In this document: piece after piece, positions 1 to 33,862 of the stretch
How the letters are laid out: each line of letters begins with the position of its first letter
Numbering within the stretch: position 1 is the stretch's first letter
DNA from: Tachypleus tridentatus
Taxonomy: Eukaryota; Arthropoda; Merostomata; Xiphosura; Limulidae
NCBI RefSeq assembly: GCF_004210375.1
Contig: NW_027467782.1
Location: forward strand, 20,315,276-20,379,275
DNA length: 64,000 nt
Direction of reading: 5' to 3'
Position numbers and translations under genes: made by a program
Notes under the pieces: model-generated
Told to the model about the DNA's origin: nothing
Seen by the model: only the letters and a program-made list of their open reading frames with translations
Databases searched by the model: none

Positions 1-341
1 TGGTAAGTTAATCACCGTGTTGGTCCTAATGTTTTTACTATTTTATTGTCAAACAGGATTAGTAGTTCACCAATATGAAGATAGAACTTTTGTAAGTTTT
101 GAGTCATTTTAACAAATTAATTACACATATATCATCAACACATTATATTATCTCAGAAACTGTAAGTATATTTAGCAGCCTGAAGGTGGTGCTTGTTTTA
201 CGCGAAATGTGAATATTTGGATCAAATCACACATTAAAAACTTTACTAGTATATGGTCTGTAAATTAAAATGTACATGTAGCGTATCGTTACAATACAAG
301 CGTTGTGTAGATAAACAATTAGATCTAGATTCCAGGTCTAA

Positions 342-612
342 CGTCCCGGTATAGCCAGGTGGTTAGGGTACTCGACCTGTAATCTGAAGAAAACGGCTCG
401 AATCCCTGTCACAACAAGCATGCTCGCGTTTTCAGTCGAGGTGGCGTTATAAAATGAGTCAATCCCAGTACCAGTTGATAAAATAGTAGCCCAAGAGTTG
501 GCGGTAGGTGATGATGACCAGCTGCCTTCCTCGTTTCTTAAACTACTTAATTAGGGACGGCTAGCTCAGATAGCCTTTGTGTAGCTTTGCGAGAAATTTC
601 AAAAGCAAACAA
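342..612 (+). repeat. Degraded tRNA-derived SINE (family A)
   Basis: The tRNA-like head (about 347-405) is followed by the family body: the 'agcccaagagttggcggt' segment near 489, 'attagggacggctagc' near 551 and a tail ending 'gtagctttgcgagaaatttc'. Substitutions and small indels show an old copy. It is mirrored at 33,248-33,522. Confidence 0.85.
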
Positions 613-1317
613 TTTAGGTCTAACACAAAAAATGTGGTAAACGTTATCGAACAACCTGACAAACAAGCTGATTCTCTTTAGGTAAAGAAAGATATCATCC
701 ATCACCACACATAAAATACTGCTAAGTAAGTACAGGTGATTATATAGAACACATCTGGGTCCAGTTTAAGAATTTTTTATACCAGTTCTTTACTTTCGAC
801 TACCTCACCAAAATGAACGAGTCTGACACTGTACACCCAGCCTATTAGAAAACATCTAGGTATTCTGTGTCTGGAATGTCCATAACTGTGTCTCTGTGAA
901 CGGCAGCTAAGTCTGTGGTTATTGTTGCAAGGTTGAAATAGGAGTTCGTCATAGACATTCCAAATTACTAACATTTTACCTTATGTAAATCATCAGTCAA
1001 AACTGTAAACACAAATTTTTCCTGTATGTAATAAACGTTACAGAAACTCGTCATATTTACACACAAAATGCCAGATAGTAAAACTAGCTCCGCTTTCAGT
1101 TACCTCTACAAGTGTCACTGTGACTTCTGAGACATCAACATGGGTGTCACTGTGACTGAAGCAAAGCTGTTATTGGTGGGAGTATCGTAAAAATGGTGTT
1201 ATTACAGTAGCTTATAGTAAACACCCACTTCAACGAAACTATATCGAAATCAAAGTTCAATATATCCCTTACAGAATAAAGTCTACCAGAAATATTGTGT
1301 TAATTGGTTTGGTGTAG
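613..1317. other. No gene seen (AT-rich arm sequence)
   Basis: Unique AT-rich sequence shared with the other arm. A short ORF on the minus strand (777-974) is identical in the mirror copy, but it resembles no family and has no supporting start or splice context. Around 1,100-1,160 a 'gtgtcactgtgact' motif occurs twice; similar 'cagtcacagtgac' words recur loosely at 34,555-34,800. Confidence 0.5.
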
Positions 1318-1525
1318 CTTGAACTTTGTTCAAAGTCACATGAGAGTTATCTCCGCTAGCCGTTCCTAATTTAGCAGTGAAAGGCCGCCAACTCTTCACC
1401 TGGTCTTTTAGTCATGAAGACTGGGATTGACCGTCACTTGGCTGAAAGGACAAGCATGTTTGGTGGGACAGGGATTCGAACCCGTCACCCTCACATTGGG
1501 ACTACTCATCTGGTCATACAGGACA
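1318..1525 (-). repeat. Degraded SINE family A, reverse orientation
   Basis: It reads on the minus strand from a B-box-like 'gggattcgaacccgtc' (1,471-1,486) through the body to 'ctccgctagccgttcc'. It lacks part of the middle of the body. It is mirrored at 32,338-32,548. Confidence 0.8.
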
Positions 1526-2865
1526 AATATAGTGTTATTGAAGGTATACCAATAATATAGTGTTAGTGAAAGTTGTTGAAAATGTTGATGTGTGTTGCCT
1601 TGTTTCTTAATTCAAGTTTAAGGATTATCTCCATCTTGAAAAGTCCTTCATGTGAGCATATCTTCACAATCCATGTACATGATTATTTTTCATGATCATC
1701 ACATACATTCCCAAACGTGACAAAGTATTAGTGACATCCAACTACATACTAAATTACAAATAATGTTGTCACTGTACCACTGGAACCTTATATTCAAGAT
1801 GTTGATTTGGTTATTCAACATTATTTTAATATAACATTCTGAACCCTGTGCATCCTACTAAAAATATAAAATGTATTAAATCATCATACATGAACAATTT
1901 TAATATTTCAGTAAATATAGAAATGTTTTCTTGATCAGTTTCTGTTAAATAATAATGTAGTATTGAATGAATCAGGTAGGATCGAACATGTTTTGAAGAT
2001 TTAAAAACTTGTTTGTTAGAATCTTTTAAACAAGCCTATTTAATAACAGTAAAACTATACAAAGACACTATAAAATGTAAATTAGTTAGTACTTTGCATT
2101 TTCAGTACGTAGTTGTATTGAAATTAACAAATGTAAAGAAATTCCTCATATTGGTTAAGAACCATTGTAATGAAAATATATCAGACAAACTGTCTGTTCA
2201 CTGTTTAAATAATTCAGTCTTTAATTGTTGTTTTTTTATAATTTTATTTACACAGCACACTTACAGTTTTGATCAAATCTTATTGCAAAAACATATACAT
2301 GATTTCAATTATTCGTATCAATAAATAATCTGAACATGTGGATATAGTCTCTTTGAATCTCTTCTCAATAACATGTTTCAACAATATCCTTACCATAATT
2401 GATGTTTTGGACTACATGGAATCAGATATTACTGTTATTTCATTTAAATGTGTCATTATATCTGCGATCTGCCTTTACAGGTTAAACACTCTGATAAGTT
2501 ATGATGGTAAATATTTTGTATAAAGAAAGTCAAATAATTCTACTTTTGAACTTACAAACAGAAGGACCAGAAAATACGTTTATTTATGGTTATTTATATA
2601 TACACTAGAATACACACATAAAATTTGAATACAGTTTTGGTAATGTCGATTTTTAGCTTTGCTTGACATATGTAGTGTCTATATTTTTTTAAAAAAAGTT
2701 ATTGTACGTTGATTGTGAATTTATGAAAACTTAATATTTCTTATACACCGTAAATATATTTCCGATAGATACCACTTCTCATAAGATGGCTTTACTGTTC
2801 AGTTTCTGCAGACACTAGTTCCACCTACCCAAGGTTTCAACAGGAACGTGACTACTTCTACTGTC
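1526..2865. other. No gene seen
   Basis: AT-rich sequence with no recognisable coding similarity on either strand. The 103-aa ORF at 2,013-2,324 is rich in F, I, L and N, as expected of AT-rich noncoding DNA. It differs from its mirror copy at one residue, which reflects arm similarity rather than coding constraint. Confidence 0.5.
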
Positions 2866-3330
2866 GCAGCCGCTTCCCAGAAAAGAAGTACCAGAAGTGT
2901 GAGTCGATATCTTACCTAAACTCACACTGACTTGGTTGAGGAAACAGTGATGAGCACCCTTCGGAAAGTGTCCAAATGCATCTCTATTGGTGCAACATCC
3001 CAACCCAGAGGAAAACACATGTGGGACAACGCTCATAACCAGATACAGTCTTCGCCCATGTTGACAGTACGTTTCACTAAACTGGGTGTCAAAAAAGAGG
3101 ATGACATCCTTAATTGTAGATATGATGGTTGGTCCACCTTTCCCATGTGCCTAGCCAACACAGTGCATCTAGACCAGTCTGTCTCCTTTCTATACCAGAC
3201 CACCTGGGAATCAACCTTTTGAAGAAGATATGACAGGGGTGTCTTAACCAACTAATACTATTTGGTTGGTCCAGTACTTTTCTAAAACCAGTTTTACCAC
3301 AAACTAACCAGCAGGAGATTGTACAGTTAT
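2866..3330 (+). repeat. Dispersed repeat related to the 62-bp minisatellite
   Basis: About 2,880-3,200 is a diverged copy of 23,100-23,470 in the same orientation, and is mirrored in the right arm at about 30,590-30,990. Shared words include 'gaagtaccagaagtgtga' and 'cggaaagtgtcca', followed by one divergent 62-bp unit ('tggtccacctttcccatg'). It looks like an unnamed mobile or dispersed element; no coding capacity was recognised. Confidence 0.65.
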
Positions 3331-4498
3331 AACATTCTCTAGTGTAGTATAGTATAGGAAAAATGATATATAGAAATGAAAAGTAAATAAGCTACATGTA
3401 CAGTTAATCCAAAAGCCACGTTTGAAACCGGAGAGTGGTGATAGTGGAATGATAATTTGACACCGAGTCTGATGAATGAGTGATATTTAAGGGAAGTACT
3501 AAGAGGGGGTATTTTGTGAAGGATAAGGACTGGAAATTAAGTTTGAGCTGGCCATAAATGTGTTATCAAAAGGACAGATGCAGGTGTGGACTGAGTGACG
3601 TATAAAACCTTGAGAAGGAAACATATATAAGTAACTTGGTCTAACTAAATAGAATTAATTTACTATCTAAGCAAAACGATGTGGTATTGGAGACCAAAAA
3701 GTTATGACTGTTTTTTCTGAGATGGGTGGTAAATGTGTACAGAGGTTGAGTATTTCACTGATTAGATAACTATCAGAACACTTGGGTATTGAAAAAACAC
3801 ACTGTAGGATCTTATAGGTATTGAGTAACGGATACCAGGTTCCATTGATTCTGTTATGCTCAGTAACAGATGTGAAAGTGAGTGTGACTCAAAGGCATAA
3901 GGACTTCCATTACAGCTATTACCTCAGTAAAGAAATTACTTCACTAGTAGACAGATTAAGACTGCATCAATCTAAACGAAAAGAAAGAAAATTCAGACCG
4001 ATTGAGAAATGTGTTGAAAATGAGTGAATTTTTGAAACTAGTTACTTAATAACTGTACAAAATAAAAATAAAAGTAATAAACAGCATGAAAAACGTTAAA
4101 GTAAAAAACAAGAAGGAAAAATTTTAACACATCATAAAACTACTGTGTCAAATGTAGAGATGAAGATTGGAACCCCCATTTTATTATCTCCAACTGGTTA
4201 GTTCAGAAGACATCTGGTTTTGGAAAAAGTTAACATTTTCTTACATGAAAATGTGTTTCCATTAGACGCTTACCATTTCACACAGAGATTATATCTTCTG
4301 TGAACATCTGCCTTGAGTATCTGCGTGACACTAGTTTTTAGGCAACTTCAATCTGAACTCACGTGATTCTTATTAATGAATAATGATGTTATTGTTTAAT
4401 AGCTCCCTCTATACTGCTCCACTCATGAAATTTCATTATTAAAGAGAAAATAAGTCGTAATTACCCAAATGAACACATACGCATCAGAAAACTTGTGA
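3331..4498. other. No recognisable gene; possible downstream part of the DIRS-like relic
   Basis: AT-rich, with no motif I can name on either strand. It follows the DIRS-like fragment in its minus-strand reading direction, so it may hold more of that element. I could not recognise tyrosine-recombinase motifs. Confidence 0.35.
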
Positions 4499-5760
4499 GT
4501 GAAGCAGGCTATTTGATAGGCAGATCATGATACAAATGATCTGTTTTCAAATTAATCGCTTCAAATACATGAGAATCTATACAGCAAATCCATTGGATGG
4601 ATGCCGAATCATGACGGTCGAGTGTTTTAAAAGGAATTAAAGATCTGATACCTGCTCTATAATTGATGTAAAAAATCACCACGAATTTATCAGAATGGAT
4701 CATAATCAAACAATTCACTAGCAGTGGTAAGGAATACAAACATGTCCAATGAACAGAACAGAGGTCGAGTACACTGATGTGTAAGAATTGCTTATGCTGG
4801 TACATATGTTTAAGATGAGATTGTTGTTCAATGATGTATCACAACCAGTAAACATAACATTTCTGAAGAGGTGTGGGTTTGGTACGATTCAAAGTGAAGG
4901 AACCAAAACAGTGGTAATAGATTATCTAGCCACAACGAGTTTCTCGAGCACAGTAGGAAACAGTGAAAATGGTTGGGTCAAGAGGATAAAGTATTGGGTT
5001 GGAGTGAGTAAGGATTTGAAAATTTGTCAATTCATCCAAAACGGGTTTCTACCATCAAAGATATAACTGGAGGACTCTTTCCATTGGTATGAAAACAGAA
5101 GGCTATCTTGCATGTAATAACGAAACCACAGACCAAGTCAACGGAGATGTAGTGTACACTTTGACCACGTGACTGAGATTGTAGTGTTTGAAACAATAAA
5201 TTATAAAATCAGTGGATGAAGAAAAGCAAGCATCTAGAGAACTCTGTGATGGGAATAGGAAGAAAGGCGTTTGTAATATAGACCTGAATATGGAATAATG
5301 ATCCAACGAAGTGAAGAGAACTTTTCTAAATGAAAACTTTGCACAGATTAATAACTAAATCCCTTCGTGTCTTTTAAGGACATCAAGTAAAACCTTGTAA
5401 GATGATTGGTAAATTTCTTCACACCTAAAGAAAACAGAATAGATTTCAAAGTGGATGAAATTGAACAGGTTTAGAACTGATCGTTAGAGAGAAAAAGGAA
5501 CTGGAGAGAAATCCTATGTGTAAGAATGGTTGTAATCCATCCGTTATTTGACATGTGGGACCAGAGGAAGAAACATTGTATAGAACAAGCCACAGCAGAA
5601 AACAGAATGGAACAAGAATCATTCCAAAGGGAACAGCATCTCTATGAAGTACTTCTGACATGAAATGAAGACGTAAAGTGCAAGGAGGCAAACAAAGAAG
5701 GTTCAGGAAAAGACAGGGTAATTGTGTACTGGGTAGTTGAACTGAATAAATGGGTCAGCT
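4499..5760 (-). pseudogene. Decayed DIRS-like retroelement fragment, RT/RNase H region
   Basis: On the minus strand, broken frames give peptides in the order expected for the end of RT and the RNase H domain of DIRS-type (tyrosine-recombinase) retroelements. Near 4,680-4,790 they are 'SVHWTCLYSLPLLVNCL' and 'SDKFVVIFYINYRAG', resembling the family's 'ELLAVHW...SDN..VVSYINHQGG' block. Further upstream is 'SLLTPTQYFILL'. Stops and frameshifts are frequent, so it is dead. The assignment rests on remembered motif shape and could instead be another RNase H-bearing retroelement. The mirror copy is at 28,140-29,380. Confidence 0.5.
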
Positions 5761-6149
5761 TTCCAAAAATTCAAAATTTATACCACAGTTTGTGAATCTA
5801 GATAGTGCATGTAAAAATAACTATAATTTTAATCAGTGAATCAGTAAGACTACGAGGACCAGACATATAGTCCTGGAAATGTAGTTGGTGTAAAAAGAAA
5901 TCAGTATGTATGCAGATGTAAGTAACTGATGAAAAACAAATAATACATCAGGATTAGATTTATACAAACGGGATTGTGAAAGAGGGAAAAAGACCTGGAA
6001 TGGAATATACATGAGAAATTAAGCCCACATAATGAGAGGATGGTCGAATACTGTCCTCAGTGGGAAGTTCACATAGCCTTAGAAGTAGATGAACGTAAAC
6101 AAACAAGCTGACCTTCTGCTGAATTTCCTATTGACATCGAAGGGATGAA
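5761..6149. other. No gene seen
   Basis: AT-rich stretch between the DIRS-like relic and the 70-bp tandem repeat, shared by both arms. No motif was recognised. Confidence 0.45.
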
Positions 6150-6440
6150 AGAGTGTCAAATATATGTGAATAAAGTTGCAGGCTACATAATGGTGTTCAC
6201 TAATATATGAAAAGTGGCTGTCATGTCAAACAGATGTGAATAAAGTTACAGACTACATGATGGTGTTCACTAATATATGAAAAGTGGCTGTCACGTCAAA
6301 TAGATGTGAATAAAGTTACAGACTACATGATGGTGTTCACTAATATATGAAAAGTGGCTGTCACGTCAAATAGATGTGAATAAAGTTACAGACTACATAA
6401 TGGTGTTCACTAATATATGAAAGTGGCTGTCACGTCATCA
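6150..6440 (+). repeat. 70-bp tandem repeat, about 4 copies
   Basis: Successive copies of 'gtgaataaagttacagacta' and 'cactaatatatgaaaagtgg' recur every 70 bp (for example 6,221, 6,291, 6,361). The mirror array at 27,395-27,755 has about 5 copies, so the arms differ in copy number. Confidence 0.9.
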
Positions 6441-6799
6441 ATACGTAACTTTCATCTCCTCGCCACTGTTGAAATTTCACTTATGTGTAAACATTCTTCT
6501 CTCACAAAGGATAGAGAAATAGTGATATGGACTTCTACGTTAATAAATAGAAAAAAAAATGTAATTCGAGAAACAAAGCAAATCTCTGTTATTAAAAACT
6601 AGTAAATCTACAAAACAAATTTTAAATACCACAGAGAGAACGAGAAAATAGGAAGTTAGTTTTCTAAGATTGTTGGAAGACACATGCTGAACTATGAAAA
6701 ATCTCATGAGCCAAGATGGCAATTGTTTAAAGACAAAAATCTCTAAGGCAAACGAACAGAGAAGACATCTTAACTGTGTTAAAAGGTTTATCTTGTTTC
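6441..6799. other. No gene seen
   Basis: AT-rich arm sequence. Short ORFs on both strands have no recognisable similarity. Confidence 0.45.
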
Positions 6800-7080
6800 A
6801 GAAGGAGCTGTAGCAGCCAATGAATATTCCAGTCGGCCGAGAAACTCCATTCATACCATCTCCTGCAGGCTGGTTCTTTGGAGATCTGGTATGGAAAGGG
6901 TGGACCAGTTTAGATGTATTGTGTTGGCTGGGATGCCCCCACCCAATCATGGAAAAGAGGGTGGACCACTTTAGATGTAATGTTTTAGCTCGGATGTTTC
7001 CCACCACTATATCATAGGAAAAGAGGGTGAACCCGTTTAGATGTATCGCGTTGAGAAAGAATGCTCCCCCCACCCAATCA
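6800..7080 (+). repeat. Divergent units of the 62-bp repeat family
   Basis: Three diverged units resembling the minisatellite ('gtggaccagtttagatgtat', 'ggctgggatgcccccaccca') form the outer edge of the array. They are mirrored at about 26,760-27,020. They retain a 'gatgtattgtgttggct' variant also seen in the dispersed repeat at 2,866-3,330. Confidence 0.75.
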
Positions 7081-7334
7081 TGGGAAAGAAGGTGGACTAA
7101 TTTATATATATTGTGTTTACTAAGATGCTCCCCACTCTACCACTCTACAAAGGAAGGTATATGTATTGTGTTTTTTTTAAGGGAAGAAGGTAAACTAATT
7201 TATATGTATTGTGTTTACTAAGATGCTCCCCACTCTACATGGGAAGAAGGTGGACTAATTTATATGTATTGTGTTTACTAAGATGCTCCCAACTCTACCA
7301 TGGGAAAGAAGGTGGACTAATTTATATGTATTGT
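7081..7334 (+). repeat. 62-bp minisatellite, outer block
   Basis: Tandem copies of a 62-bp unit containing 'gtggactaatttatatgtat' and 'ctaagatgctccccactcta'. The array stops exactly where a PLE terminus begins and resumes at 8,949. Short 'ORFs' here are products of the repeat, not genes. Confidence 0.9.
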
Positions 7335-7400
7335 AATATATATGCAAAAAAACAGCTCGTTTGGGTTGAGAAAATATTTCGCATAGAAGAACAAACAACG

Positions 7401-7426
7401 TTTCGACCTTCTTCTGTCATCGTCAG
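7401..7426 (-). ncRNA. Hammerhead-ribozyme-like core in PLE 3' end
   Basis: The minus strand reads CTGACGA, then a hairpin with GAC/GTC ends, then GAAAC: the order of hammerhead core elements. One stem II pair is lost compared with the 53,925 copy. Stems I and III were not confirmed. Confidence 0.4.
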
Positions 7427-8826
7427 GTTCATGAAGAAAGAAGAGTAACTGACCGAAAGCTGACCACATCTTTGAAAGGGGTTGTGTAACTGGGTGTCAG
7501 AATGTTGAGTGGGCGGTGTTAGATGTTTGAAATATATAATATAATTTTATTTTATTACATTTAAATATATGAATAAAGGCGTTCTTTTATATTGGTTTAT
7601 TTTGGGTTTACGTTGTTGTATAAGTAAGGCTTTTTTTAATTTTGCGTTTGTTTATGTTTGTTTCTTTATTTAGTATTTGTGTGTTTTCTATGGTTATGTT
7701 GTGTTTATTTGACTTGCAGTGTTCGAAAACGAGTGAAGGTGACTTTTATGTTCTTTGAATCTGGTTTCCATTTTCTACTTGTTTCTCCAATATAGAAGTC
7801 GTGGCAGTTATCACATTGTATTTTATAAATAACGTTTTTGTGGTGTTTGTCAGTGTAGTTTTTTTATAGTATATAACAGGAAGAACGCAATGAACAGGAA
7901 GAAAGCAATCAAATATCATTTCTTAACCTCAAAATTACAAGAACCGACACACAATTCAAAACAGAAATCCACCGAAAAATCACCCATACTGGACTATACA
8001 TTCCTTGGGACTCAGCACATGAAACAAAATAAAAACTCAACATACTAAGAAACCAAATAAACACAGCCAAAACCGATACTCACCAGATAAAATTAACGAT
8101 GAATCAGACAAAATAAAACAATATTTCATCAACATCAATAAGTTTCCTCCACAAACCGTAGAAAACATTATACGCAAACACCTGGACAGAAAAGCAAAAT
8201 CAACCAACTAAAAAATAAACACATCTCACGAATCAAAAAATCACGAAACCATATACTGCTGTATACCATATATTCCTGACATCAACCAAACAAATAACCA
8301 ACATTTGGCAAAAACTAGTAACAAAATACGACATTCCAGTTAATACCAAATTTATTCAAAAAACCAGGCACAAAACTGAGGGTCTATACTATGTAAAAAC
8401 TACTACTGACAAACACCACACCAACATTATTTAAAAATACAATGTGATAACTGCCACAACTTCTATATATTGGAGAAACAAGTAGAAAAATGGAAACCAG
8501 ATTCAAAGAACATAAAAGTCACCTTCACACGTTTTCGAAACTGCAAATCAAATAAACACAACATAACCATAGAAAACACTCAACGCTACTAAAATAAAAG
8601 AAAAAACATAAACAAACGCAAAAATTAAAGAAACCTTACTTATACAACAACTAAAACCCAAAATAAACCAATATAAAGGAACGCTTACTTTACCTATATT
8701 AATATAATAAAATAAATAAAATTATATATTCAAACATCTAACACCGCCCTCTACATTCCAACTTTCAGTTACACAACCTTTGAAACATGTGGTCAGCTTC
8801 CGGTCAGTTACCTCTTTATTTGTGAA

Positions 8827-8852
8827 CTGACGATGACCAGAGGAGGTCGAAA
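8827..8852 (+). ncRNA. Hammerhead-ribozyme-like core in PLE 3' end
   Basis: CTGACGA (8,827-8,833), a GACC/GGTC hairpin and GAAA (8,849-8,852), in the same position relative to the PLE terminus as the other copies. One base is unpaired between CTGACGA and the stem. Confidence 0.45.
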
Positions 8853-8948
8853 CGTTGTTCGCTCTTCTATGTAAAATATCTTCTCAACCAAACGAGCCGT
8901 TTTTGCATGCATATATTTCTCTACAAGTGGGTTTCTCGACAACACTGA

Positions 8949-9645
8949 TTATATGTATTGTGTTTACTAGGATGCTCCCCACTCTACCATGAGAAAGAAG
9001 ATGGACTAATTCATATGTCTTGTGCTTACTAAGATGCTCACCAGTCTATCATGGGAAGAGAAGATGGACTAATTTATATGTATTGTGTTTACTATGATGC
9101 TCCCCACTCTGTCATGGGACAGAGGTGGACTAATTTATATGTATTGCGATTACTAAGACCTCCCACTCTACCATGGGAAAAAAGGGTGGACTAATTTATG
9201 TGTATTGTATTTACTAAAATGCTCCCACTCTACTATGGGAAAGAAAGTGGACTAATTTATATGTATTGTGTTTTACTAAGATGCTCCCCACTCTACCATG
9301 GGAAGGAAGGTGGACTAATTTATATGTATTGTGTTTGCTAAGATGCTCACACCTATCATGGGAAGAAAGAAGGTGGACTAATTTATGTATTGTGTTTACT
9401 AAGATGCTCTCACCCTACCATGGGAAAGAAGGTGGACTAATTTATATGTATTGTGTTTACTAGATGCTCCCACTCTACCATGGGAAAGAAGGTGGACTAA
9501 TTTATATGTATTGTGTTTATAAGATACTCCCACTCTACATGGGAAGAAGGTGGACTAATTTATATGTATTGTGTTTTACTAGATGCTCCCCACTCTACCA
9601 TGGGAAGAAGATTGGACTAATTTATATGTGTGTGTTTACTAGATG
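8949..9645 (+). repeat. 62-bp minisatellite, inner block
   Basis: About eleven tandem copies of the 62-bp unit with small indels, running into the N gap. The mirrored array (23,460-24,893) is about twice as long. The missing units are therefore probably in the gap. Confidence 0.9.
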
Positions 9646-10145
9646 NNNNNNNNNNNNNNNNNNNNNNNNNNNNNNNNNNNNNNNNNNNNNNNNNNNNNNN
9701 NNNNNNNNNNNNNNNNNNNNNNNNNNNNNNNNNNNNNNNNNNNNNNNNNNNNNNNNNNNNNNNNNNNNNNNNNNNNNNNNNNNNNNNNNNNNNNNNNNNN
9801 NNNNNNNNNNNNNNNNNNNNNNNNNNNNNNNNNNNNNNNNNNNNNNNNNNNNNNNNNNNNNNNNNNNNNNNNNNNNNNNNNNNNNNNNNNNNNNNNNNNN
9901 NNNNNNNNNNNNNNNNNNNNNNNNNNNNNNNNNNNNNNNNNNNNNNNNNNNNNNNNNNNNNNNNNNNNNNNNNNNNNNNNNNNNNNNNNNNNNNNNNNNN
10001 NNNNNNNNNNNNNNNNNNNNNNNNNNNNNNNNNNNNNNNNNNNNNNNNNNNNNNNNNNNNNNNNNNNNNNNNNNNNNNNNNNNNNNNNNNNNNNNNNNNN
10101 NNNNNNNNNNNNNNNNNNNNNNNNNNNNNNNNNNNNNNNNNNNNN
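9646..10145. other. Assembly gap (500 N)
   Basis: Exactly 500 ambiguous bases, a placeholder size. It interrupts the minisatellite at the inner end of the left arm. Any ORF spanning it is meaningless. Confidence 1.
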
Positions 10146-10820: not shown

Positions 10821-12134
10821 ATGATATCTCTTGATAAGCTGTACATTTACTGACAAAACCATCCGACGATGAAAGTGAACATGATAATTTCGAAGACTAC
10901 TCTGAAAGTTGTGATGATGATCCTTCTGAAGCCGAAAATGATGAACAAATCGCTCCGTACCCTTCTGAAAGTGAAGAAAGTAATCAAGAAGATCTTACTA
11001 CGATGCCAGTGAACGAACTTTTGTCCAAAGATAAGAATTTTAGTTATTCAACAACACCTTCAAGGATCAACAGGAGAACCGCAGCTCTCAATATATTCAA
11101 TGGGAACCCAGGCATTACAAGGCAAGCTGCTCCAAGAGTCTCTACACCATTTGAAACATTCAAAATTTTCATTTCTGATAATATGATGGAACAGATCATT
11201 CACTCAACAAACACCGTCATGAAAGAACCAATTTTTTGAAGAAGACCTCTGGAAATGGATCGCAGCTAATCTTTTCCTTGGAATAAGCAAATCCAAAAAT
11301 GCATCGATAGACGAAATGTTTTCAACCGAATTCGGTTTGCCATTTTTGCGAAAACTGATTACACAAGACAAATTCAAAAAAATGAGCTCAAAAATCAGAT
11401 TTGACATCCACTCTCAAAGAAATAGAGAAATCAAAGATGCCGCCATCTCTGGAGTCTGGAATTTTTTCATTGAAAATTGCAAAAACAGTTACAACCCCAA
11501 GCGAATACCTGACAGTGGATGAACAACTATGTAACGGAAATCAAGAACCTTCCTGCCTCCTGAAATAAATGCAAAATCTAGAGAGTTATCACCAAAGTTT
11601 TTCTACCATGACGACATCACTCTTCTCAGGCACTCAGACAAACCAGGAAAATATGTGCTACTACTGAGTTCTCAGCATCAGTCTGGTGAAGTAGAAGAGA
11701 ATGGAAAGCCCGAAATCGTCAATCTTTACAATGCAACGAAGGCAGGTGTCGACCCTCTCGATCAACTGGTGAGATATCATACAACAAAGAGGCGATCAAA
11801 GCGCTGGTCAGTCTGCATATTCTATAACATTCTAGATCTTGCTGCGTACAATGCTTTCGTTCTATACTCGACAAAACATCCAGAATTTCTTCGTCAACAT
11901 AAATCAAGAGCCAGAAGAGAATTTATACGGCAATTGGTGCTTGAAATCAAAGAAATTTACTGCAAAGATAATGACAAAACAACCTCATGTGAACCGCCTG
12001 CAAAGAGGGCAAAAGAGGACGATGCCATTTGTGCGGCAGATCAAAAGATAGACAGTCGAAAATTGTTTGCTCAAATTGTAAAAAAAAATGTTTGTCAGAG
12101 CCATTCTAAAGTTGTTTGTAATGAATGTTGCTAA
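10821..12134 (+). pseudogene. piggyBac transposase, frameshifted and missing its catalytic centre
   Basis: DDE-type transposase remnant. A candidate ATG at 10,821 leads after one frame change into an acidic N-terminal region (about 10,845-11,000) typical of piggyBac proteins. The dimerisation/DNA-binding region follows (about 11,003-11,520), with a frameshift in a T run near 11,235. Another frame change precedes the 'LTVDEQL' block holding the first catalytic Asp (codon 11,518-11,520). Directly after it, sequence normally found more than about 100 residues later begins, so the segment with the second Asp is deleted. The last part (11,655-12,134, open) has 'GVDPLDQL', the late conserved Asp region, and ends in a short Cys-containing tail. 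The length is well below that of intact members of the family. It cannot be active. Confidence 0.9.
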
Positions 12135-23040: not shown

Positions 23041-23459
23041 AAAGCTGGAAGCTGGCTTCCTATTTACTGTAGAACACAATCTTCAAAGTTGACAGAAAAG
23101 AAGTACCAGAAGTGTGAGGAGAGTAAAGTATCAATGGGAAATATATTTTCAGTGTAAGAAAACATCAACTTTGACACGATATCTTACCTAAAAATAACAG
23201 GAATCACATTGAGAAGCTCATATTGACTTGGTGGAGGAACCTAGATGAGCAGTCCTCGGAAAGTGTCCACAAGATGCCCTCGGGTGTGACTTCTCTTCTT
23301 GGAGGAACGCACTTGTGGGATAACGTGTAAATAACTAGGTACACTCTTTTCCCTATCTTGAAAGTACGGGTCACGACGCTGGGTGTAAAATGACATTTTA
23401 ACTGTAGATATCCGGGCTGATCCACCTTCTTTCCCATGTTGGGGGAGGGACATCTTAGC
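23041..23459 (+). repeat. Dispersed repeat related to the 62-bp minisatellite (spacer/right-arm edge)
   Basis: Diverged copy of 2,880-3,200 in the same orientation, running directly into the minisatellite. Nothing like its reverse complement follows the gap at 10,146, so the arm boundary lies within or next to this point. Confidence 0.7.
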
Positions 23460-24893
23460 AGATACAGTACATATAAAGTTGTCCATCTTTTTTTCCCATG
23501 GTAGAGTGGAGAACATCTTAGTAAACACAATACATATAAATTAGTCCACCTTCTTTCCCATGGTAGAGTGGGGGGAGCATCTTAGTAAACACAATACATA
23601 TAAATTAGTCCACCTTCTTTCCCATGGAGTGGGGAGCATCTTAGTAAACACAATATATAAATTAGTCCACCTTCTTTCCCATGGTAGAGTGGGGAGCATC
23701 TTAGTAAACACAATACATATAAATTAGTCCACCTTCTTTCCCATGGTAGAGTGGGGAGCATCTTAGTAAACACAATACATATAAATTAGTCCACCTTCTT
23801 TCCCATGTAGAGTGGGGAGTATCTTAGTAAACACAATACATATAAATTAGTCCACCTTCTTTCCCATGTTAGGTGGGGGTATCTTAGTAAACACAATACA
23901 TATAAATTAGTCCACCTTCTTTCCCATGGTAGAGTGGGGAGTATCTTAGTAAACACAATACATATAAATTAGTCCACCTTCTTTCCCATGGTAGAGTGGG
24001 GAACATCTTAGTAAACACAATACATATAAATTAGTCCACCTTCTTTCCCATGGTAGAGTGGGGAGCATCTTAGTAAACACAATACATATAAATTAGTCCA
24101 CCTTTCTTTCCCATGGTAGAGTGGGGAGCATCTTAGTAAACACAATACATATAAATTAGTCCACCTTCTTTCCCATGGTAGAGTGGGGAGCATCTTAGTA
24201 AACACAATACATATAAATTAGTCCACCTTCTTTCCCATGGTAGAGTGGGGAGCATCTTAGTAAACACAATACATATAAATTAGTCCACCTTCTTTCCCAT
24301 GGTAGAGTGGGAGCATCTTAGTAAACACAATACATATAAATTAGTCCACCTTCTTTCCCATGGTAGAGTGGGGAGTATCTTAGTAATCGCAATACATATA
24401 AATTAGTCCACCTTCTTTCCCATGGTAGAGTGGGGAGCATCTTAGTAAACACAATACATATAAATTAGTCCACCTTCTTTCCCATGATAGGTGTGGGGAG
24501 CATCTTAGCAAACACAATACATATAAATTAGTCCACCTTCCTTCCCATGGTAGAGTGGGGAGCATCTTAGTAAACACAATACATATAAATTAGTCCACTT
24601 TCTTTCCCATGGTAGAGTGGGGAGCATTTTAGTAAATACAATACATATAAATTAGTCCACCTTTTTTCCCATGGTAGAGTGGGAGTGTCTTAGTAATCAC
24701 AATACATATAAATTAGTCCACCTTCTTTCCCATGACAGAGTGGGAGCATCATAGTAAACACAATACATATAAATTAGTCCACCTTCTTTCCCATGATAGA
24801 CTGGTGAGCATCTTAGTAAGCACAATACATATAAATTAGTCCACCTTCTTTCTCATGGTAGAGTGGGGAGCATCTCAGTAAACACAATACATA
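23460..24893 (-). repeat. 62-bp minisatellite, about 23 copies
   Basis: Tandem 'ttagtaaacacaatacatat', 'aaattagtccaccttctttc', 'ccatggtagagtggggagca' units. Copies in the middle are nearly identical, while the edges are more diverged. Because 62 is not a multiple of three, the ORFs it generates are artefacts. Confidence 0.97.
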
Positions 24894-24990
24894 TAATCAG
24901 TGTTGTCGAGAAACCCACTTGTAGAGAAATATATATGCAAAACGGCTCGTTTGGGTTGAGAAGATATTTTACATAGAAGAGCGAACAACG

Positions 24991-25016
24991 TTTCGACCTT
25001 CTTCGGTCATCGTCAG
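24991..25016 (-). ncRNA. Hammerhead-ribozyme-like core in PLE 3' end
   Basis: Minus-strand CTGACGA, GACC/GGTC hairpin, GAAAC, identical in layout to the copy at 53,925. Confidence 0.45.
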
Positions 25017-26402
25017 GTTCACAAAGAAAGAGGTAACTGACCGGAAGCTGACCACATGTTTCAAAGGGGTTGTGTAACTGAAAGTTGGAATGTAGAGGGC
25101 GGTGTTAGATGTTTGAATATATAATTTTATTTATTTTATTATATTAATATAGGTATAAAGGCGTTCCTTTATATTGGTTTATTTTGGGTTTAAGTTGTTG
25201 TATAAGTAAGGCTTCTTTAATTTTGCGTTTGTTTATGTTTGTTTCTTTATTTAGTATTTGAGTGTTTTCTATGGTTATGTTGTGTTTATTTGACTTGCAG
25301 TGTTCGAAAACGTGTGAAGGTGACTTTTTATGTTCTTTGAATCTGGTTTCCATTTTTCTACTTGTTTCTCCAATATAGAAGTTGTGGCAGTTATCACATT
25401 GTATTTTTTAAATAATGTTGGTCTGGTGTTTGTCAGTGTAGTTTTTACATAGTATAGACCTCAGTTTTGTGCCTGGTTTTGAATAAATTTGGTATTAACT
25501 GGAATGTCGTATTTTGTTACTAGTTTTTGCCAAATGTTGGTTATTTGTTTGCTGATGTCAGGAATATATGGTATACAGCAGTATATGGTTTCGTGATTTT
25601 TTGATTCGTGAGATGTGTTTACTTTAGTTGGTTGATTTTGCTTTCTGTCCAGGTGTTTGCGTATAATGTTTTCTACGGTTTGTGGAGGAAACTTATTGAT
25701 GTTGATGAAGTATTGTTTTATTTTGTCTGATTCATCGTTAATTTTATCTGGTGAGCATCGGTTTTTGGCTGTGTTTATTTGGTTTTTTAGTATGTTGAGT
25801 TTTTATTTTGTTTCATGTGCTGAGTCCCAAGGAATGTATAGTCCAGTATGGGTGATTTTTCGGTGGATTTCTGTTTTGAATTGTGTGTCGGTTCTTGTAA
25901 TTTTGAGGTTAAGAAATGATATTTGATTGCTTTCTTCCTGTTCATTGCGTTCTTCCTGTCTATACTATGTAAAAACTACACTGACAAACACCACAAAAAC
26001 GTTATTTATAAAATACAATGTGATAACTGCCACGACTTCTATATTGGAGAAACAAGTAGAAAAATGGAAACCAGATTAAAAGAACATAAAAAGTCACCTT
26101 CACTCGTTTTCGAACACTCCAAGTCAAATAAACACAACATAACCATAGAAAACACACAAATACTAAATAAAGAAACAAACATAAACAAACGCAAAATTAA
26201 AAAAGCCTTACTTATACAACAACGTAAACCCAAAATAAACCAATATAAAGGAACGCCTTTATACCTATATTAAATGTAATAAAATAAAATTATATTATAT
26301 ATTCAAACATCTAACACCGCCCACTACATTCCGACACCCAGTTACACAACCCCTTTCAAAGATGTGGTCAGCTTTCTGTCAGTTACCTCTTTCTTCATGA
26401 AC

Positions 26403-26428
26403 CTGACGATGACAGAAGAAGGTCGAAA
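26403..26428 (+). ncRNA. Hammerhead-ribozyme-like core in PLE 3' end
   Basis: CTGACGA (26,403-26,409) to GAAA (26,425-26,428), mirror of 7,401-7,426. Confidence 0.4.
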
Positions 26429-26485
26429 CGTTGTTCGCTCTTCTATGTAAAATATTTTCTCAACCCAAACGAGCCGTTTTGCATA

Positions 26486-27020
26486 TATATTACAATTCAT
26501 ATAAATTAGTCCACCTTCTTTCCCATGTCCACCTTCTTTCCCATGTAGAGTGGGGAGCATCTTAGTAAACACAATACATATAAATTAGTCCACCTTCTTT
26601 CCAATACATGTCCACCTTCTTTCCCATGTAGAGTGGGGAGCATCTTAGTAAACACAATACATATAAATTAGTCCACCTTCTTTTAGTAAACCAATACATG
26701 GTAGAGTGGGGAGCATCTTAGTAAACACAATATATATAAATTAGTCCACCTTCTTTCCCATGATTGGGTGGGGAGCATTCTTCTCAACGCGATACATCTA
26801 AACGGGTTCACCTCTTTTCCTATGATAGGGTGGGAAACATCCGAGCTAAAACATTACATCTAAAGTGGTCCACCCTCTTTCCCATGATTGGGTGGGGGGC
26901 ATCCTAGCCAACACAATACATCTAAACTGGTCCACCTCCTTTCCATACCAGATCTCCAAAGAACCAGCCTGCAGGAGATGGTATGAATGGAGTTTCTCGG
27001 CCGACTGGTATATTCATTGG
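26486..27020 (-). repeat. 62-bp minisatellite, outer block with scrambled and divergent units
   Basis: Units resume after the PLE pair. Several are shortened or rearranged ('ctttccaatacatgtccacc'), and three divergent units follow towards 27,020. The rearranged part has no exact counterpart in the left arm (7,081-7,334), so the arms have diverged here. Confidence 0.85.
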
Positions 27021-27394
27021 CTGCTACAGCTCCTTCTGAAACAAGATAAACCTTTTAACACAGTTAAGATGTCTTCTCTGTTCGTTTGCCTTAGAGATTT
27101 TTCTCTTTAAACAATTGCCATCTTGGCTCATGAGATTTCTCATAGTTCAGCATGTGTCTTCCAACAATCTTAGAAAAACTAACTTCCTATTTTCTCGTTC
27201 TCTCTGTGGTATTTAAAATTTGTTTTGTAGATTTACTATTTTTTAATAACAGAGATTTGCTTTGTTTCTCGAATTACATTTTTTTTATTTATTAACGTAG
27301 AAGTCCATATCACTATTTCTCTATCCTTTGTGAGAGAAGAATGTTTACACATAAGTGAAATTTCAACAGTGGCGAGGAGATGAAAGTTACGTAT

Positions 27395-27755
27395 TGATGA
27401 CGTGACAGCCACTTTTCATATATTAGTGAACACCATTATGTAGTCTGTAACTTTATTCACATCTATTTGACGTGACAGCCACTTTTCATATATTAGTGAA
27501 CACCATCATGTAGTCTGTAACTTTATTCACATCTATTTGACATGACAGCCACTTTTCATATATTAGTGAACACCATTATGTAGCCTGCAACTTCATTCAC
27601 ATCTATTTGACATGACAGCCACTTTTCATATATTAGTGAACACCATTATGTAGTCTGTAACTTTATTCACATCTATTTGACATGACAGCCACTTTTCATA
27701 TATTAGTGAACACCATTATGTAGCCTGCAACTTTATTCACATATATTTGACACTC
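27395..27755 (-). repeat. 70-bp tandem repeat, about 5 copies
   Basis: Mirror of 6,150-6,440 with one more copy. 'catgacagccacttttcata' recurs every 70 bp. Confidence 0.92.
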
Positions 27756-28139
27756 TTTCATCCCTTCGATGTCAATAGGAAATTCAGCAGAAGGTCAGCT
27801 TGTTTGTTTACGTTCATCTACTTCTAAGGCTATGTGAACTTCCCACTGAGGACAGTATTCGACCATCCTCTCATTATGTGGGCTTAATTTCTCATGTATA
27901 TTCCATTCCAGGTCTTTTTCCCTCTTTCACAATCCCGTTTGTATAAATCTAATCCTGATGTATTATTTGTTTTTCATCAGTTACTTACATCTGCATACAT
28001 ACTGATTTCTTTTTACACCAACTACATTTCCAGGACTATATGTCTGGTCCTCGTAGTCTTACTGATTCACTGATTAAGAATTATAGTTATTTTTACATGC
28101 ACTATCTAGATTCACAAACTGTGGTATAAATTTTGAATT

Positions 28140-29380
28140 TTTGGAAAGCTGACCCATTTATTCAGTTCAACTACCCAGTACACAATTACCCTGTCTTTTC
28201 CTGAACCTTCTTTGTTTGCCTCCTTGCACTTTACGTCTTCATTTCATGTCAGAAGTACTTCATAGAGATGCTGTTCCCTTTGGAATGATTCTTGTTCCAT
28301 TCTGTTTTCTGCTGTGGCTTGTTCTATACAATGTTTCTTCCTCTGGTCCCACATGTCAAATAACGGATGGATTACAACCATTCTTACACATAGGATTTCT
28401 CTCCAGTTCTTTTCTCTCTAACGATCAGTTCTAAACCTGTTCAATTTCATCCACTTTGAAATCTATTCTGTTTTCTTTAGGTGTGAAGAAATTTACCAAT
28501 CATCTTACAAGGTTTTACTTGATGTCCTTAAAAGACACGAAGGGATTTAGTTATTAATCTGTGCAAAGTTTTCATTTAGAAAAGTTCTCTTCACTTCGTT
28601 GGATCATTATTCCATATTCAGGTCTATATTACAAACGCCTTTCTTCCTATTCCCATCACAGAGTTCTCTAGATGCTTGCTTTTCTTCATCCACTGATTTT
28701 ATAATTTATTGTTTCAAACACTACATCTCCGTTGACTTGGTCTGTGGTTTCGTTATTACATGCAAGATAGCCTTCTGTTTTCATACTCATGGAAAGAGTC
28801 CTCCAGTTATATCTTTGATGGTAGAAACCCGTTTTGGATGAATTGACAAAATGTTCAAATCCTTACTCACTCCAACCCAATACTTTATCCTCTTGACCCA
28901 ACCATTTTCACTGTTTCCTACTGTGCTCGAGAAACTCGTTGTGGCTAGATAATCTATTACCACTGTTTTGGTTCCTTCACTTTGAATCGTACCAAACCCA
29001 CACCTCTTCAGAAATGTTATGTTTACTGGTTGTGATACATCATTGAACAACAATCTCATCTTAAACATATGTACCAGCATAAGCAATTCTTACACATCAG
29101 TGTACCCGACCTCTGTTCTGTTCATTGGACATGTTTGTATTCCTTACCACTGCTAGTGAATTGTTTGATTATGATCCATTCTGATAAATTCGTGGTGATT
29201 TTTTACATCAATTATAGAGCAGGTATCAGATCTTTAATTCCTTTTAAAACACTCGACCGTCATGATTCGGCATCCATCCAATGGATTTGCTGTATAGATT
29301 CTCATGTATTTGAAGCGATTAATTTGAAAACAGATCATTTGTATCATGATCTGCCTATCAAATAGCCGCTTCACTCACAA
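28140..29380 (+). pseudogene. Decayed DIRS-like retroelement fragment (right arm)
   Basis: Mirror of 4,499-5,760, carrying the same RT/RNase H-like peptide blocks in the same order on the plus strand and the same main stops. A few private indels (for example after 28,425 and near 28,720) change local frames. It has no coding potential as it stands. Confidence 0.5.
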
Positions 29381-30589
29381 GTTTTCTGATGCGTATGCGT
29401 TCATTTGGGTAATTACGACTTATTTTCTCTTTAATAATGAAATTTCATGAGTGGAGCAGTATAGAGGGAGCTATTAAACAATAACATCATTATTCATTAA
29501 TAAGAATCACGTGAGTTCAGATTGAAGTTGCCTAAAAACTAGTGTCACGCAGATACTCAAGGCAGATGTTCACAGAAGATATAATCTCTGTGTGAAATGG
29601 TAAGCGTCTAATGGAAACACATTTTCATGTAAGAAAATGTTAACTTTTCCAAAACCAGATGTCTTCTGAACTAACCAGTTGGAGATAATAAAATGGGGGT
29701 TCCAATCTTCATCTCTACACAATAGTTTTATGATGTGTTAAAATTTTTCCTTCTTGTTTTTTTACTTTAACGTTTTTCATGCTGTTTATTACTTTTTATT
29801 TTGTACAGTTATTAAGTAACTAGTTTCAAAATTCACTCATTTTCAACACATTTCTCAATCGGTCTGAATTTTCTTTCTTTTCGTTTAGATTGATGCAGTC
29901 TTAATCTGTCTACTAGTGAAGTAATTTCTTTACTGGAGGTAATAGCTGTAATGGAAGTCCTTATGCCTTTGAGTCACACTCACTTTCACATCTGTTACTG
30001 AGTATAACAGAATCAATGGAACCTGGTATCCATTACTCAATACCTATAAGATCCTACAGTGTGTTCTTTCAATACCCAAGTGTTCTGATAGTTATCTAAT
30101 CAGTGAAATACTCAACCTCTGTACACATTTACCACCCATCTCAGAAAGAACAGTCATAACTTTTTGGTCTCCAATACCACATCGTTTTGCTTAGATAGTA
30201 AATTAATTCTATTTAGTTAGACCAAGTTACTTATATATGTTTCCTTCTCAAGGTTTTATACGTCACTCAGTCCACACCTGCATCTGTCCTTTTGATAACA
30301 CATTTATGGCCAGCTCAAACTTAATTTCCAGTCCTTATCCTTCACAAAATACCCCCTCTTAGTACTTCCCCTTAAATATCACTCATTCATCAGACTCGGT
30401 GTCAAATTATCATTCCACTATCACCACTCTCCGGTTTCAAACGTGGCTTTTGGATTAACTGTACATGTAGCTTATTTACTTTTCATTTCTATATATCATT
30501 TTTCCTATACTATACTACACTAGAGAATGTTATAACTGTACAATCTCCTGCTGGTTAGTTTGTGGTAAAACTGGTTTTAGAAAAGTACT

Positions 30590-30990
30590 GGACCAACCAA
30601 ATAGTATTAGTTGGTTAAGACACCCCTGTCATATCTTCTTCAAAAGGTTGATTCCCAGGTGGTCTGGTATAGAAAGGAGACAGACTGGTCTAGATGCACT
30701 GTGTTGGCTAGGCCATGGGAAAGGTGGACCAACCATCATATCTACAACTAAGGATGCCATCCTCTTTTGACACCCAGTTTAGTGAAACGTACTGTCAACA
30801 TGGGCGAAGACTGTATCTGGTTATGAGCGTTGTCCCACATGTGTTTTCCTCTGGGTTGGGATGTTGCACTCCAATAGAGATGCATTTGGACACTTTCCGA
30901 AGGGTGCTCATCACTGTTTCCTCAACCAAGTCAGTGTGAGTTTAGGTAAGATATCGACTCACACTTCTGGTACTTCTTTTCTGGGAAGCG
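30590..30990 (-). repeat. Dispersed repeat related to the minisatellite (right arm)
   Basis: Mirror of 2,866-3,330. Confidence 0.65.
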
Positions 30991-32337
30991 GCTGCGACAG
31001 TAGAAGTAGTCACGTTCCTGTTGAAACCTTGGATAGGTGGAACTAGTGTCTGCAGAAACTGAACAGTAAAGCCATATTATGAGAAGTGGTATCTATCGGA
31101 AATATATTTAGGGTGTATAAGAAATATTAAGTTTTCATAAATTCACAATCAACGTACAATAACTTTTTTTTTAAAAAATATAGACACTACAGATGTCAAG
31201 CAAAGCTGAAAATCGACATTACCAAAACTGTATTCAAATTTTATGTGTGTAATCTAGTGTATATATAAATAACCATAAATAAACGTATTTTCTGGTCCTT
31301 CTGTTTGTAAGTTCAAAAGTAGAATTATTTGACTTTCTTTATACAAAATATTTACCATCATAACTTATCAGAGTGTTTAACCTGTAAAGGCAGATCGCAG
31401 ATATAATGACACATTTAAATGAAATAACAGTAATATCTGATTCCATGTAGTCCAAAACATCAATTATGGTAAAGATATTGTTGAAACATGTTATTCAGAA
31501 GAGATTCAAAGAGACTATATCCACATGTTCAGAATATTTATTGATACGAATAATTGAAATCATGTATATGTTTTTGCAATAAGATTTGATCAAAACTGTA
31601 AGTGTGCTGTATAAATAAAATTATAAAAAAACAACAATTAAAGACTGAATTATTTAAACAGTGAACAGACAGTTTGTCTGATATATTTTCATTACAATGG
31701 TTCTTAACCAATATGAGGAATTTCTTTACATTTGTTAATTTCAATACAACTACGTACTGAAAATGCAAAGTACTAACTAATTTACATTTTATAGTGTCTT
31801 TGTATAGTTTTACTGTTATTAAATAGGCTTGTTTAAAAGATTCTAACAAACAAGTTTTTAAATCTTCATAACATGTTCGATCCTACCTGATTCATTCAAT
31901 ACTAAATTATTATTTAACAGAAACTGATCAAGAAAACATTTCTATATTTACTGAAATATTAAAATTGTTCATGTATGATGATTTAATACATTTTATATTT
32001 TTAGTAGGATGCACAGGGTTCAGAATGTTATATTAAAATAATGTTGAATAACCAAATCAACATCTTGAATATAAGGTTCCAGTGGTACAGTGACAACATT
32101 ATTTGTAATTTAGTATGTAGTTGGATGTCACTAATACTTTGTCACGTTTGGGAATGTATGTGATGATCATGAAAAATAATCATGTACATGGATTGTGAAG
32201 ATATGCTCACATGAAGGACTTTTCAAGATGGAGATAATCCTTAAACTTGAATTAAGAAACAAGGCAACACACATCAACATTTTCAACAACTTTCACTAAC
32301 ACTATATTATTGGTATACCTTCATTAACACTATATTT

Positions 32338-32548
32338 GTCCTGTATGACCAGATGAGTAGTCCCAATGTGAGGGTGACGGGTTCGAATCCCTGTCCCACC
32401 AAACATGCTTGTCCTTTCAGCCAAGTGACGGTCAATCCCAGTCTTCATGACTAAAAGACCAGGTGAAGAGTTGGCGGCCTTTCACTGCTAAATTAGGAAC
32501 GGCTAGCGGAGATAACTCTCATGTGACTTTGAACAAAGTTCAAGCTAC
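32338..32548 (+). repeat. Degraded SINE family A (right arm)
   Basis: Mirror of 1,318-1,525. The B-box-like 'gggttcgaatccctgtcc' lies at 32,379-32,396. Confidence 0.8.
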
Positions 32549-33247
32549 ACCAAACCAATTAACACAATATTTCTGGTAGACTTTATTATGTAAGGGATAT
32601 ATTGACTTTGATTTTGATATAGTTTCGTTGAAGTGGGTGTTTACTATAAGCTACTTTATTAATACCATTTTACGATATTAACACCAATAACAGCTTTGCT
32701 TCAGTCACAGTGACACCCATGTTGATGTCTCAGAAGTCACAGTGACACTTGTAGAGGTAACTGAAAGCGGAGCTAGTTTTACTATCTGGCATTTTGTGTG
32801 TAAATATGACGAGTTTCTGTAACGTTTATTACATACAGGAAAACCTTCTGTTTACAGTTTTGACTAATGATTTACATAAGGTAAAATGTTAGTAATTTGG
32901 AATGTCTATGACGAACTCCTATTTCAACCTTGCAACAATAACCACAGACTTAGCTGCCGTTCACAGAGACACAGTTATGGACATTCCAGACACAGAATAC
33001 CTAGATGTTTTCTAATAGGCTGGGTGTACAGTGTCAGACTCGTTCATTTTGGTGAGGTAGTCGAAAGTAAAGAACTGGTATAAAAATTCTTAAACTGGAC
33101 CCAGATGTGTTCTATATAATCACCTGTACTTACTTAGCAGTATTTTATGTGTGGTGATGGATGATATCTTTCTTTACCTAAAGAGAATCAGCTTGTTTGT
33201 CAGGTTGTTCGATAACGTTTACCACATTTTTTGTGTTAGACCTAAAT

Positions 33248-33522
33248 TGTTTGCTTTTGAAATTTCTCGCAAAGCTACACAAAGGCTATCTGAGCTAGCC
33301 GTCCCTAATTAAGTAGTTTAAGAAACGAGGAAGGCAGCTGGTCATCATCACCTACCGCCAACTCTTGGGCTACTATTTTATCAACTGGTACTGGGATTGA
33401 CTTATTTTATAACGCCACCTCGACTGAAAACGCGAGCATGCTTGTTGTGACAGGGATTCGAGCCGTTTTCTTCAGATTACAGGTCGAGTACCCTAACCAC
33501 CTGGCTATACCGGGATGTTAGA
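33248..33522 (-). repeat. Degraded SINE family A (right arm)
   Basis: Mirror of 342-612. Confidence 0.85.
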
Positions 33523-33862
33523 CCTGGAATCTAGATCTAATTGTTTATCTACACAACGCTTGTATTGTAACGATACGCTACATGTACATTTTTAATTTAC
33601 AGACCATATACTAGTAAAGTTTTTAATGTGTGATTTGATCCAAATATTCACATTTCGCGTAAAACAAGCACCACCTTCAGGCTGCTAAATATACTTACAG
33701 TTTCTGAGATAATATAATGTGTTGATGATATATGTGTAATTAATTTGTTAAAATGACTCAAAACTTACAAAAGTTCTATCTTCATATTGGTGAACTACTA
33801 ATCCTGTTTGACAATAAAATAGTAAAAACATAAGGACCAACACGGTGGTGATTAACTTACCA

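What the first reader, a model, noticed from the sequence alone, without database searches (positions are those of the whole stretch)
1..33862. Near-perfect giant palindrome: two ~10-kb arms around a ~13-kb spacer
Seen: the left 9.6 kb recurs inverted at 23,460-33,862 with only scattered differences, and even short noncoding ORFs are identical between arms (777-974 against 32,886-33,083). Known: long inverted repeats with high arm identity are either recent inverted duplications, kept alike by gene conversion, or assembly errors. Inference: private indels, different tandem copy numbers and a spacer with unrelated content argue against a simple read-hairpin artefact, but a haplotype misjoin is still possible because an N gap sits at the arm boundary.
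Basis: partly seen in the sequence, partly recalled or inferred. Interest (0 to 1): 0.75.

Follow-up and report, generated by a model that had tools for sequence, protein, structure and literature searches.

The report
Mirror-image ends of a giant repeat
The two mirrored stretches are real but are two of many near-identical copies of a huge repeated DNA block found mostly near chromosome ends, and an unsequenced gap between them leaves it open whether they truly face each other.

Summary
Position 33,862 is just the partner of window base 1. In the assembly the arms run from window coordinate -24,988 to 9,645 and from 58,914 down to 24,191, about 34.7 kb each, with 1.14% substitutions.

The "spacer" and part of each arm belong to a 30.5-kb tandem unit; one full period is contiguous and N-free on C14. 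Unit sequence was found on ten scaffolds and the outermost flank on six. On C1-C13, 8 of 11 clusters of listed hits lie within 10 Mb of a scaffold end; the lists are capped.

The window therefore shows two array edges in opposite orientation, with a 500-N gap inside the array. The right arm ends inside a SINE at 58,914; 13 other matches run on past that point, so the left arm is not simply its allele. The left contig's last 2 kb or so before the gap is error-rich. Whether the two edges really adjoin cannot be told without long reads.

New member of a known kind: segmental duplication with a macrosatellite-like core.

The parts
1..9645 (-). Inner part of the left arm (contig A); it continues left to window coordinate -24,988 (C19:20290288)
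   Evidence: self-comparison
8949..9645 (-). 61-bp minisatellite cut by the gap; part of the error-rich end of contig A
   Evidence: TRF; single-base indels 22 in 697 positions against 9 in 1415 of the right arm's array; in register with the right array
9646..10145 (.). Scaffold gap of exactly 500 N, with tandem-unit sequence on both sides
   Evidence: unit continuity at C14
10146..32532 (+).
   Evidence: copies
10838..12134 (+). Broken piggyBac-type transposase inside the unit
   Evidence: PF13843; PDB matches 6x67 and piggyBat 9c0f
23421..24896 (+). 62-bp minisatellite, 23.9 copies, in the right copy
24983..26436 (.). Two fragments of a reverse-transcriptase element (Penelope-like is my recalled label; Pfam says only RVT_1) in opposite orientation, next to the minisatellite
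27398..27752 (+). 70-bp array, 5.1 copies (4.1 copies at 6155-6437 in the left arm)
32301..32532 (+). SINE-related stretch where unit copies on C14, C10, C2 and C3 leave the window sequence; their identity to it has fallen to about 85% there
32533..58914 (+). Flank of the array, outer part of the right arm, mirrored at -24,988 to about 1,330
58776..58914 (+). 5' part of a tRNA-like SINE; the right arm breaks here, while the left arm and 13 other genomic matches run on past this point

Best explanation
The two arms are copies of one large duplicated segment: the last unit of a tandem array of about 30.5-kb units plus 26 kb of the flank beyond the array. They lie in opposite orientation on either side of an unassembled stretch of that array.

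Shown: the size of the arms, one tandem period at C14, the many copies, the mostly subterminal clusters among the listed hits, the outer breakpoint inside a SINE, and the error-rich contig end.

Inferred: array units on different chromosomes are kept alike by unequal crossing-over and gene conversion. SINE copies serve as exchange or template-switch points that set segment ends and flip orientation. The right arm is a derived copy cut off in the SINE, because the left arm's continuation is the one shared with 13 other matches. How many units the gap hides is unknown. The direct adjacency of the two array ends rests on a join across 500 N and is not shown, so the misjoin rival below shares most of this explanation.
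For: Arms extend to -24,988 / 58,914: 382 substitutions in 33,481 aligned bases, 84 + 85 gap events. Forty scored matches (580 candidates) to 30000-31000 at 96-100%, the left arm 15th of the 40 with the query's own place first. Forty scored of 991 candidates to 21800-23300 at 97-100%. A direct repeat at offset 30,525 bp, 98.2% over 4.1 kb, in N-free sequence at C14. The passage from 32,532 through the closing piece back to 10,146 at 4 of 4 loci examined outside C19 (C14, C10, C2, C3), C3 with about 2 kb missing just after it. Identity of those four to the right arm falls from 98-100% at 29.9-31.1 kb to 84-85% at 32.3-32.5 kb, unevenly in C10 and C3, while two C19 array-edge copies stay at 95-100%. 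8 of 11 clusters on C1-C13 within 10 Mb of an end, where 12.7% of that sequence lies. The outer break lies in a SINE and 13 other matches cross it. An N-free palindrome of the same unit exists at C12 (arms at least 3.25 kb, 98.9%, spacer 91 bp), so orientation flips also occur within a gap-free stretch.
Against: No read crosses the gap in anything I could see. In the outermost 1.5 kb the left arm is the right arm's best match (98%, next 97%), which also fits a local duplication or an allele with a structural difference. C19 is a 69.8-Mb scaffold numbered among small ones and may itself be a collection of repeat contigs. Interior clusters exist: C3 41.8 Mb, C10 122.2 Mb, C11 16.2 Mb, and for the flank C3 51.6 Mb and C9 94.0 Mb. 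The hit lists are capped, the 10-Mb and cluster limits were chosen after seeing them, and only one tandem period was read in full.
Confidence: 0.72

Rival explanations
1. Scaffolding misjoin: contigs A and B are ends of two different arrays (or two ends of one array with one contig flipped), put together by a scaffolder because both carry the same repeat. This shares the family reading above and denies only the adjacency.
For: 500-N gap between two pieces of unit sequence. Contig A is error-rich at that end. A second 500-N gap abuts unit sequence on C10. 500-N joins are documented for Hi-C scaffolding with 3D-DNA (PMC8926247, passages); that this assembly was made so is my guess.
Against: The left arm is the right arm's best match at the outer end. 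An inverted copy of the unit exists at C12 without a gap.
Confidence: 0.42
2. False duplication: contig A is the other haplotype of the right arm, kept and placed inverted beside it.
For: Substitution rate 0.67% in the outer part of the visible arm. Homology runs to the very end of contig A. Differing consensus quality between copies is a sign listed for homotype false duplication (PMC8081667, passages).
Against: Homology stops inside both contigs at 58,914 / -24,988 with different sequence beyond. 13 other matches share the left arm's continuation and the right arm does not. One copy elsewhere on C19 is nearly as close.
Confidence: 0.13
3. One very large mobile element whose copies have spread as units.
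For: Many near-identical copies on ten scaffolds; transposase and reverse-transcriptase debris inside.
Against: Head-to-tail junctions. Copies part from the window at different places: C14-type copies at 32,532, the C19 3.4-Mb copy at 31,626, the right arm at 58,914, others further out. No intact element recognised in the frames tested.
Confidence: 0.05

Closest known systems
Human macrosatellites (TAF11-Like array on chromosome 5, SST1 on chromosome 19, D4Z4)
   Same: Multi-kilobase tandem units kept nearly identical; inverted monomers at an array edge (TAF11-Like) or two arrays in opposite orientation (SST1 chr19), as described in PMC3018141 (passages read)
   Different: The units described in those passages are about 2.4-5.3 kb and tend to sit on one or two chromosomes; here about 30.5 kb with copies on ten scaffolds, made of transposon debris and minisatellites
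Subtelomeric / interchromosomal segmental duplications (as in primates; recalled)
   Same: Large, highly identical blocks shared between ends of different chromosomes, with breakpoints in SINEs
   Different: Here with a tandem 30.5-kb core
False duplications in assemblies (heterotype and homotype; PMC8081667, passages)
   Same: Near-identical copies either side of a scaffold gap, one with poorer consensus
   Different: Homology ends inside contigs at a SINE, and many further copies exist

Membership tests
Macrosatellite | Head-to-tail tandem units of several kb | tested here: met
   Offset 30,525 bp, 98.2%, N-free, one period at C14; same junction at C10, C2, C3
Macrosatellite | Tends to be confined to one or two chromosomes (PMC3018141) | tested here: not met
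   Matches on C1, C2, C3, C4, C10, C11, C12, C13, C14 and C19
Macrosatellite | Unit number varies between individuals | not testable with these tools
   No reads or second assembly seen here
Segmental duplication | At least 1 kb at 90% identity or more, within or between chromosomes (definition recalled) | tested here: met
False haplotype duplication | Homology runs to contig ends without an internal breakpoint (criterion of my own) | tested here: not met
   Inner end reaches the gap, but the outer end stops inside both contigs
False haplotype duplication | Half read depth on both copies | not testable with these tools
   No reads
Palindrome kept alike by arm-to-arm gene conversion | Arms clearly more alike than other copies of the family | tested here: inconclusive
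   0.69-0.79% between arms against 0.86-1.10% to the C19 40.17-Mb copy and 0.94-4.90% to the others; 98% against 97% for the next at the outer end
Large transposable element | Same two ends in independent copies | tested here: not met
   Ends differ among the copies looked at

The most novel reading that the evidence does not exclude
A 30.5-kb tandem unit without detected host genes is homogenised across the ends of many non-homologous chromosomes. Its arrays carry mirror-image edges made by SINE-mediated inverted duplication, so large palindromes are a regular product of how these subterminal arrays evolve.
Probability: 0.3. Interest if true: 0.55.

Novelty: new member of a known kind. Interest (0 to 1): 0.38.

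Why it matters
It corrects the picture of an isolated palindrome: the region is one edge of a multi-chromosome family of large duplicated blocks. If real, these arrays would be hot spots for exchange between chromosome ends and a natural test of how far concerted evolution reaches between non-homologous chromosomes. In practice it warns that gaps in such assemblies can fall inside arrays of 30-kb units, and that apparent palindromes beside scaffold gaps should be checked against the whole genome before they are called either real or haplotype artefacts.

Tried and rejected
My first reading, in notebook entry 1, was an allelic contig end placed inverted. I gave it up after one search listed 40 copies and one search showed an outer breakpoint inside both contigs. 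An earlier count said about 24 of the 40 hits are on C19; the recount is 17.

An rDNA spacer was considered for the 30-kb period: Rfam at gathering thresholds found no rRNA in the window or in seven loci. A hairpin-read artefact was considered: the outer part of the visible arm has 41 substitutions, 21 transitions and 20 transversions, and 21 indel events, which I judge unlike long-read error. Amplification of a host gene was considered: of 19 distinct window frames and 6 of the 9 closing-piece frames of 90 aa or more, the Pfam matches above cut-off are transposase, reverse transcriptase and one CCHC zinc knuckle. A few weak matches below cut-off to other families were set aside. Other frames and small exons were not tested.

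Species identity was not established; a family search meant for it did not complete. A global alignment of the whole arms was killed by the sandbox and was replaced by a BLAST alignment. The array-register part of the script crashed; it was redone with 148 bp of unique flank and array-only.

Papers: PMC8081667 (passages), PMC9835750 (passages), PMC8926247 (passages), PMC3018141 (passages); others were seen only as search listings. One search listed no paper.
Full report
WHAT WAS CHECKED. The inverted homology is real. Window 1-6437 matches the reverse complement of 33862-27468 at 98.2%, and 6154-9645 matches 27682-24191 at 93.8%. The gap is 9646-10145, exactly 500 N.

THE ARMS ARE LARGER THAN SEEN. 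The window is C19:20315276-20379275 of a 2.167-Gb assembly with 205 scaffolds. The 30 kb to its left and 10 kb to its right were fetched. The match continues from window coordinate -24,988 to 9,645 against 58,914 to 24,191, with 382 substitutions in 33,481 aligned bases (1.14%) and 84 + 85 gap events. Identity with gap columns counted is 92.3% (2,396 gap columns), largely from tandem arrays of different length as I read it.

THE INNER EDGE IS MISSING. Contig A stops inside the 61-bp array. Array against array, it fits best in register with the right array counted from its outer edge: 18 substitutions and 93.6% identity, against 34-48 substitutions and at most 91.1% at 13 shifted registers. So the assembly contains no left arm/spacer junction.

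CONTIG A'S END IS ERROR-RICH. A fragment of a reverse-transcriptase element occurs in both arms and at 52999-53958. Against that third copy, 43 columns are private to the left arm and 2 to the right (binomial P = 6e-11). A second fragment gives 16 against 3. Over nine copies the left arm has 34 private columns and the others 0, 2, 1, 1, 3, 18, 7 and 13; the 18 belongs to a copy cut by a fetch boundary, probably for that reason. Single-base indels in the minisatellite are 22 in 697 positions against 9 in 1415, and substitutions 32 against 32. Indel events in the inner 2.4 kb, which includes tandem repeats, are 45 against 21 in the outer 6.1 kb.

A DISPERSED FAMILY. A probe from the arm (30000-31000) gave 40 scored matches from 580 candidates, at 96-100% identity: 17 on C19 (the query itself included), 4 on C14 and 19 on C1-C13. 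The left arm ranks 15th of the 40. On C1-C13, 16 of 19 and 19 of 19 of these hits lie within 10 Mb of a scaffold end. They form 11 clusters, 8 of them terminal, where 12.7% of the sequence is that close to an end (P = 8e-6, with limits chosen after seeing the data). These lists are best-scoring samples, not a census.

A 30.5-KB TANDEM UNIT. At C14 the stretch 7896527-7931549 is N-free and repeats itself at an offset of 30,525 bp (98.2% over 4.1 kb). It contains, in order and with small indels, window 20305-32532, about 7.8 kb absent from the window, and window 10146-24401 and on. The same passage through the closing piece back to 10,146 occurs at C10, C2 and C3, at C3 with about 2 kb missing just after it. 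The gap in the window thus has unit sequence on both sides. A second 500-N gap abuts unit sequence on C10. Rfam gave no rRNA. Frames tested in the unit and its closing piece gave piggyBac-type transposase and reverse-transcriptase pieces.

ARRAY EDGE AND FLANK. From about 32.5 kb outward the window carries a flank. Two other C19 copies (40.17 and 50.3 Mb) continue into the same flank, in several aligned blocks, to at least 44 kb. Both have a further unit hit about 30 kb on the other side (40,202,046 and 50,316,692). Copies of the C14 type lose identity to the right arm from 98-100% at 29.9-31.1 kb to 84-85% at 32.3-32.5 kb, with the 200-bp bin at 31.9 kb back at 96-97% in C10 and C3. A C19 copy at 3.4 Mb follows the same decline and leaves altogether at 31,626. 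I read this as homogenisation of inner units fading at the array edge; it is inference.

BREAKPOINTS IN SINEs. The right arm ends at 58,914 inside a tRNA-like SINE (the tRNA likeness is my reading of its sequence). The left arm keeps the whole SINE. With a probe across that point (40 scored of 7872 candidates), 13 other matches run through it. Twelve of them go to about 280 bp beyond and stop or break there, and one goes to the probe's end. The right arm stops exactly at the point, and one copy (C1 179.13 Mb) stops earlier. So among the copies seen the break is private to the right arm, which looks derived. The 32,532 switch point also lies in SINE-related sequence. That SINEs served as exchange or template-switch sites is inference; SINE pieces are common here, so some breakpoints would fall in them by chance.

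IS THE INVERTED ADJACENCY REAL? For: in the outermost 1.5 kb the left arm is the right arm's best match (98%, next 97%). In the reverse probe the right arm has the highest identity over the shared part (98%, others 94-97%). An N-free palindrome of the same unit exists on C12 (arms at least 3.25 kb, 98.9%, spacer 91 bp), though its centre and polarity differ from the window's. Against: the join rests on a 500-N gap in an array, contig A's end is of poor quality, and C19 is an odd 69.8-Mb scaffold numbered among small ones. I hold the two readings as nearly even.

GENE CONVERSION BETWEEN ARMS. Pairwise differences over two stretches: arms 0.79% and 0.69%; left arm to C19 40.17 Mb 1.02% and 0.86%; right arm to it 0.94% and 1.10%; left arm to C19 50.3 Mb 1.18% and 2.67%; right arm to it 0.94% and 2.90%; C19 40.17 to 50.3 Mb 0.55% and 1.95%; arms to C14, C10, C2 and C3 3.4-4.9% in the first stretch. 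One non-partner copy is nearly as close as the partner, so arm-specific conversion is not needed, but it is not excluded.

VERDICT. A real inverted homology, mis-sized and mis-framed: two edges of a large, multi-chromosome, tandem-cored segmental-duplication family, separated by an unassembled piece of array. New member of a known kind. 

Noticed in passing
51166-51237: A high-scoring tRNA-Ala(TGC) gene (73 bits) about 100 bp upstream of reverse-transcriptase reading frames (51335-53536) within the duplicated flank; whether the element targets tRNA genes was not tested.
   Followed up: no
L053 (C12:133966500-133973500), 1-6610: An N-free near-perfect palindrome of the unit with a 91-bp spacer, centred beside the minisatellite in the reverse-transcriptase fragments; its arms reach at least to the start of the fetched stretch.
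   Followed up: partly
G000 C4:121707658-121711763 and C4:121788901-121793039; C1:179.442 and 179.483 Mb: Two further pairs of flank copies in opposite orientation, facing inward rather than outward.
   Followed up: no
41650-41982: Open frame with a CCHC zinc knuckle (PF00098, E 8e-7), probably a retroelement gag remnant in the flank.
   Followed up: no
45018-46660: A 37-bp tandem array of about 45 copies in the flank; the left-arm counterpart is about 0.3 kb shorter by the alignment blocks.
   Followed up: partly
59011-59268: 44-bp tandem array directly outside the right arm's break, matching the 3' part of the same SINE in reverse orientation.
   Followed up: partly
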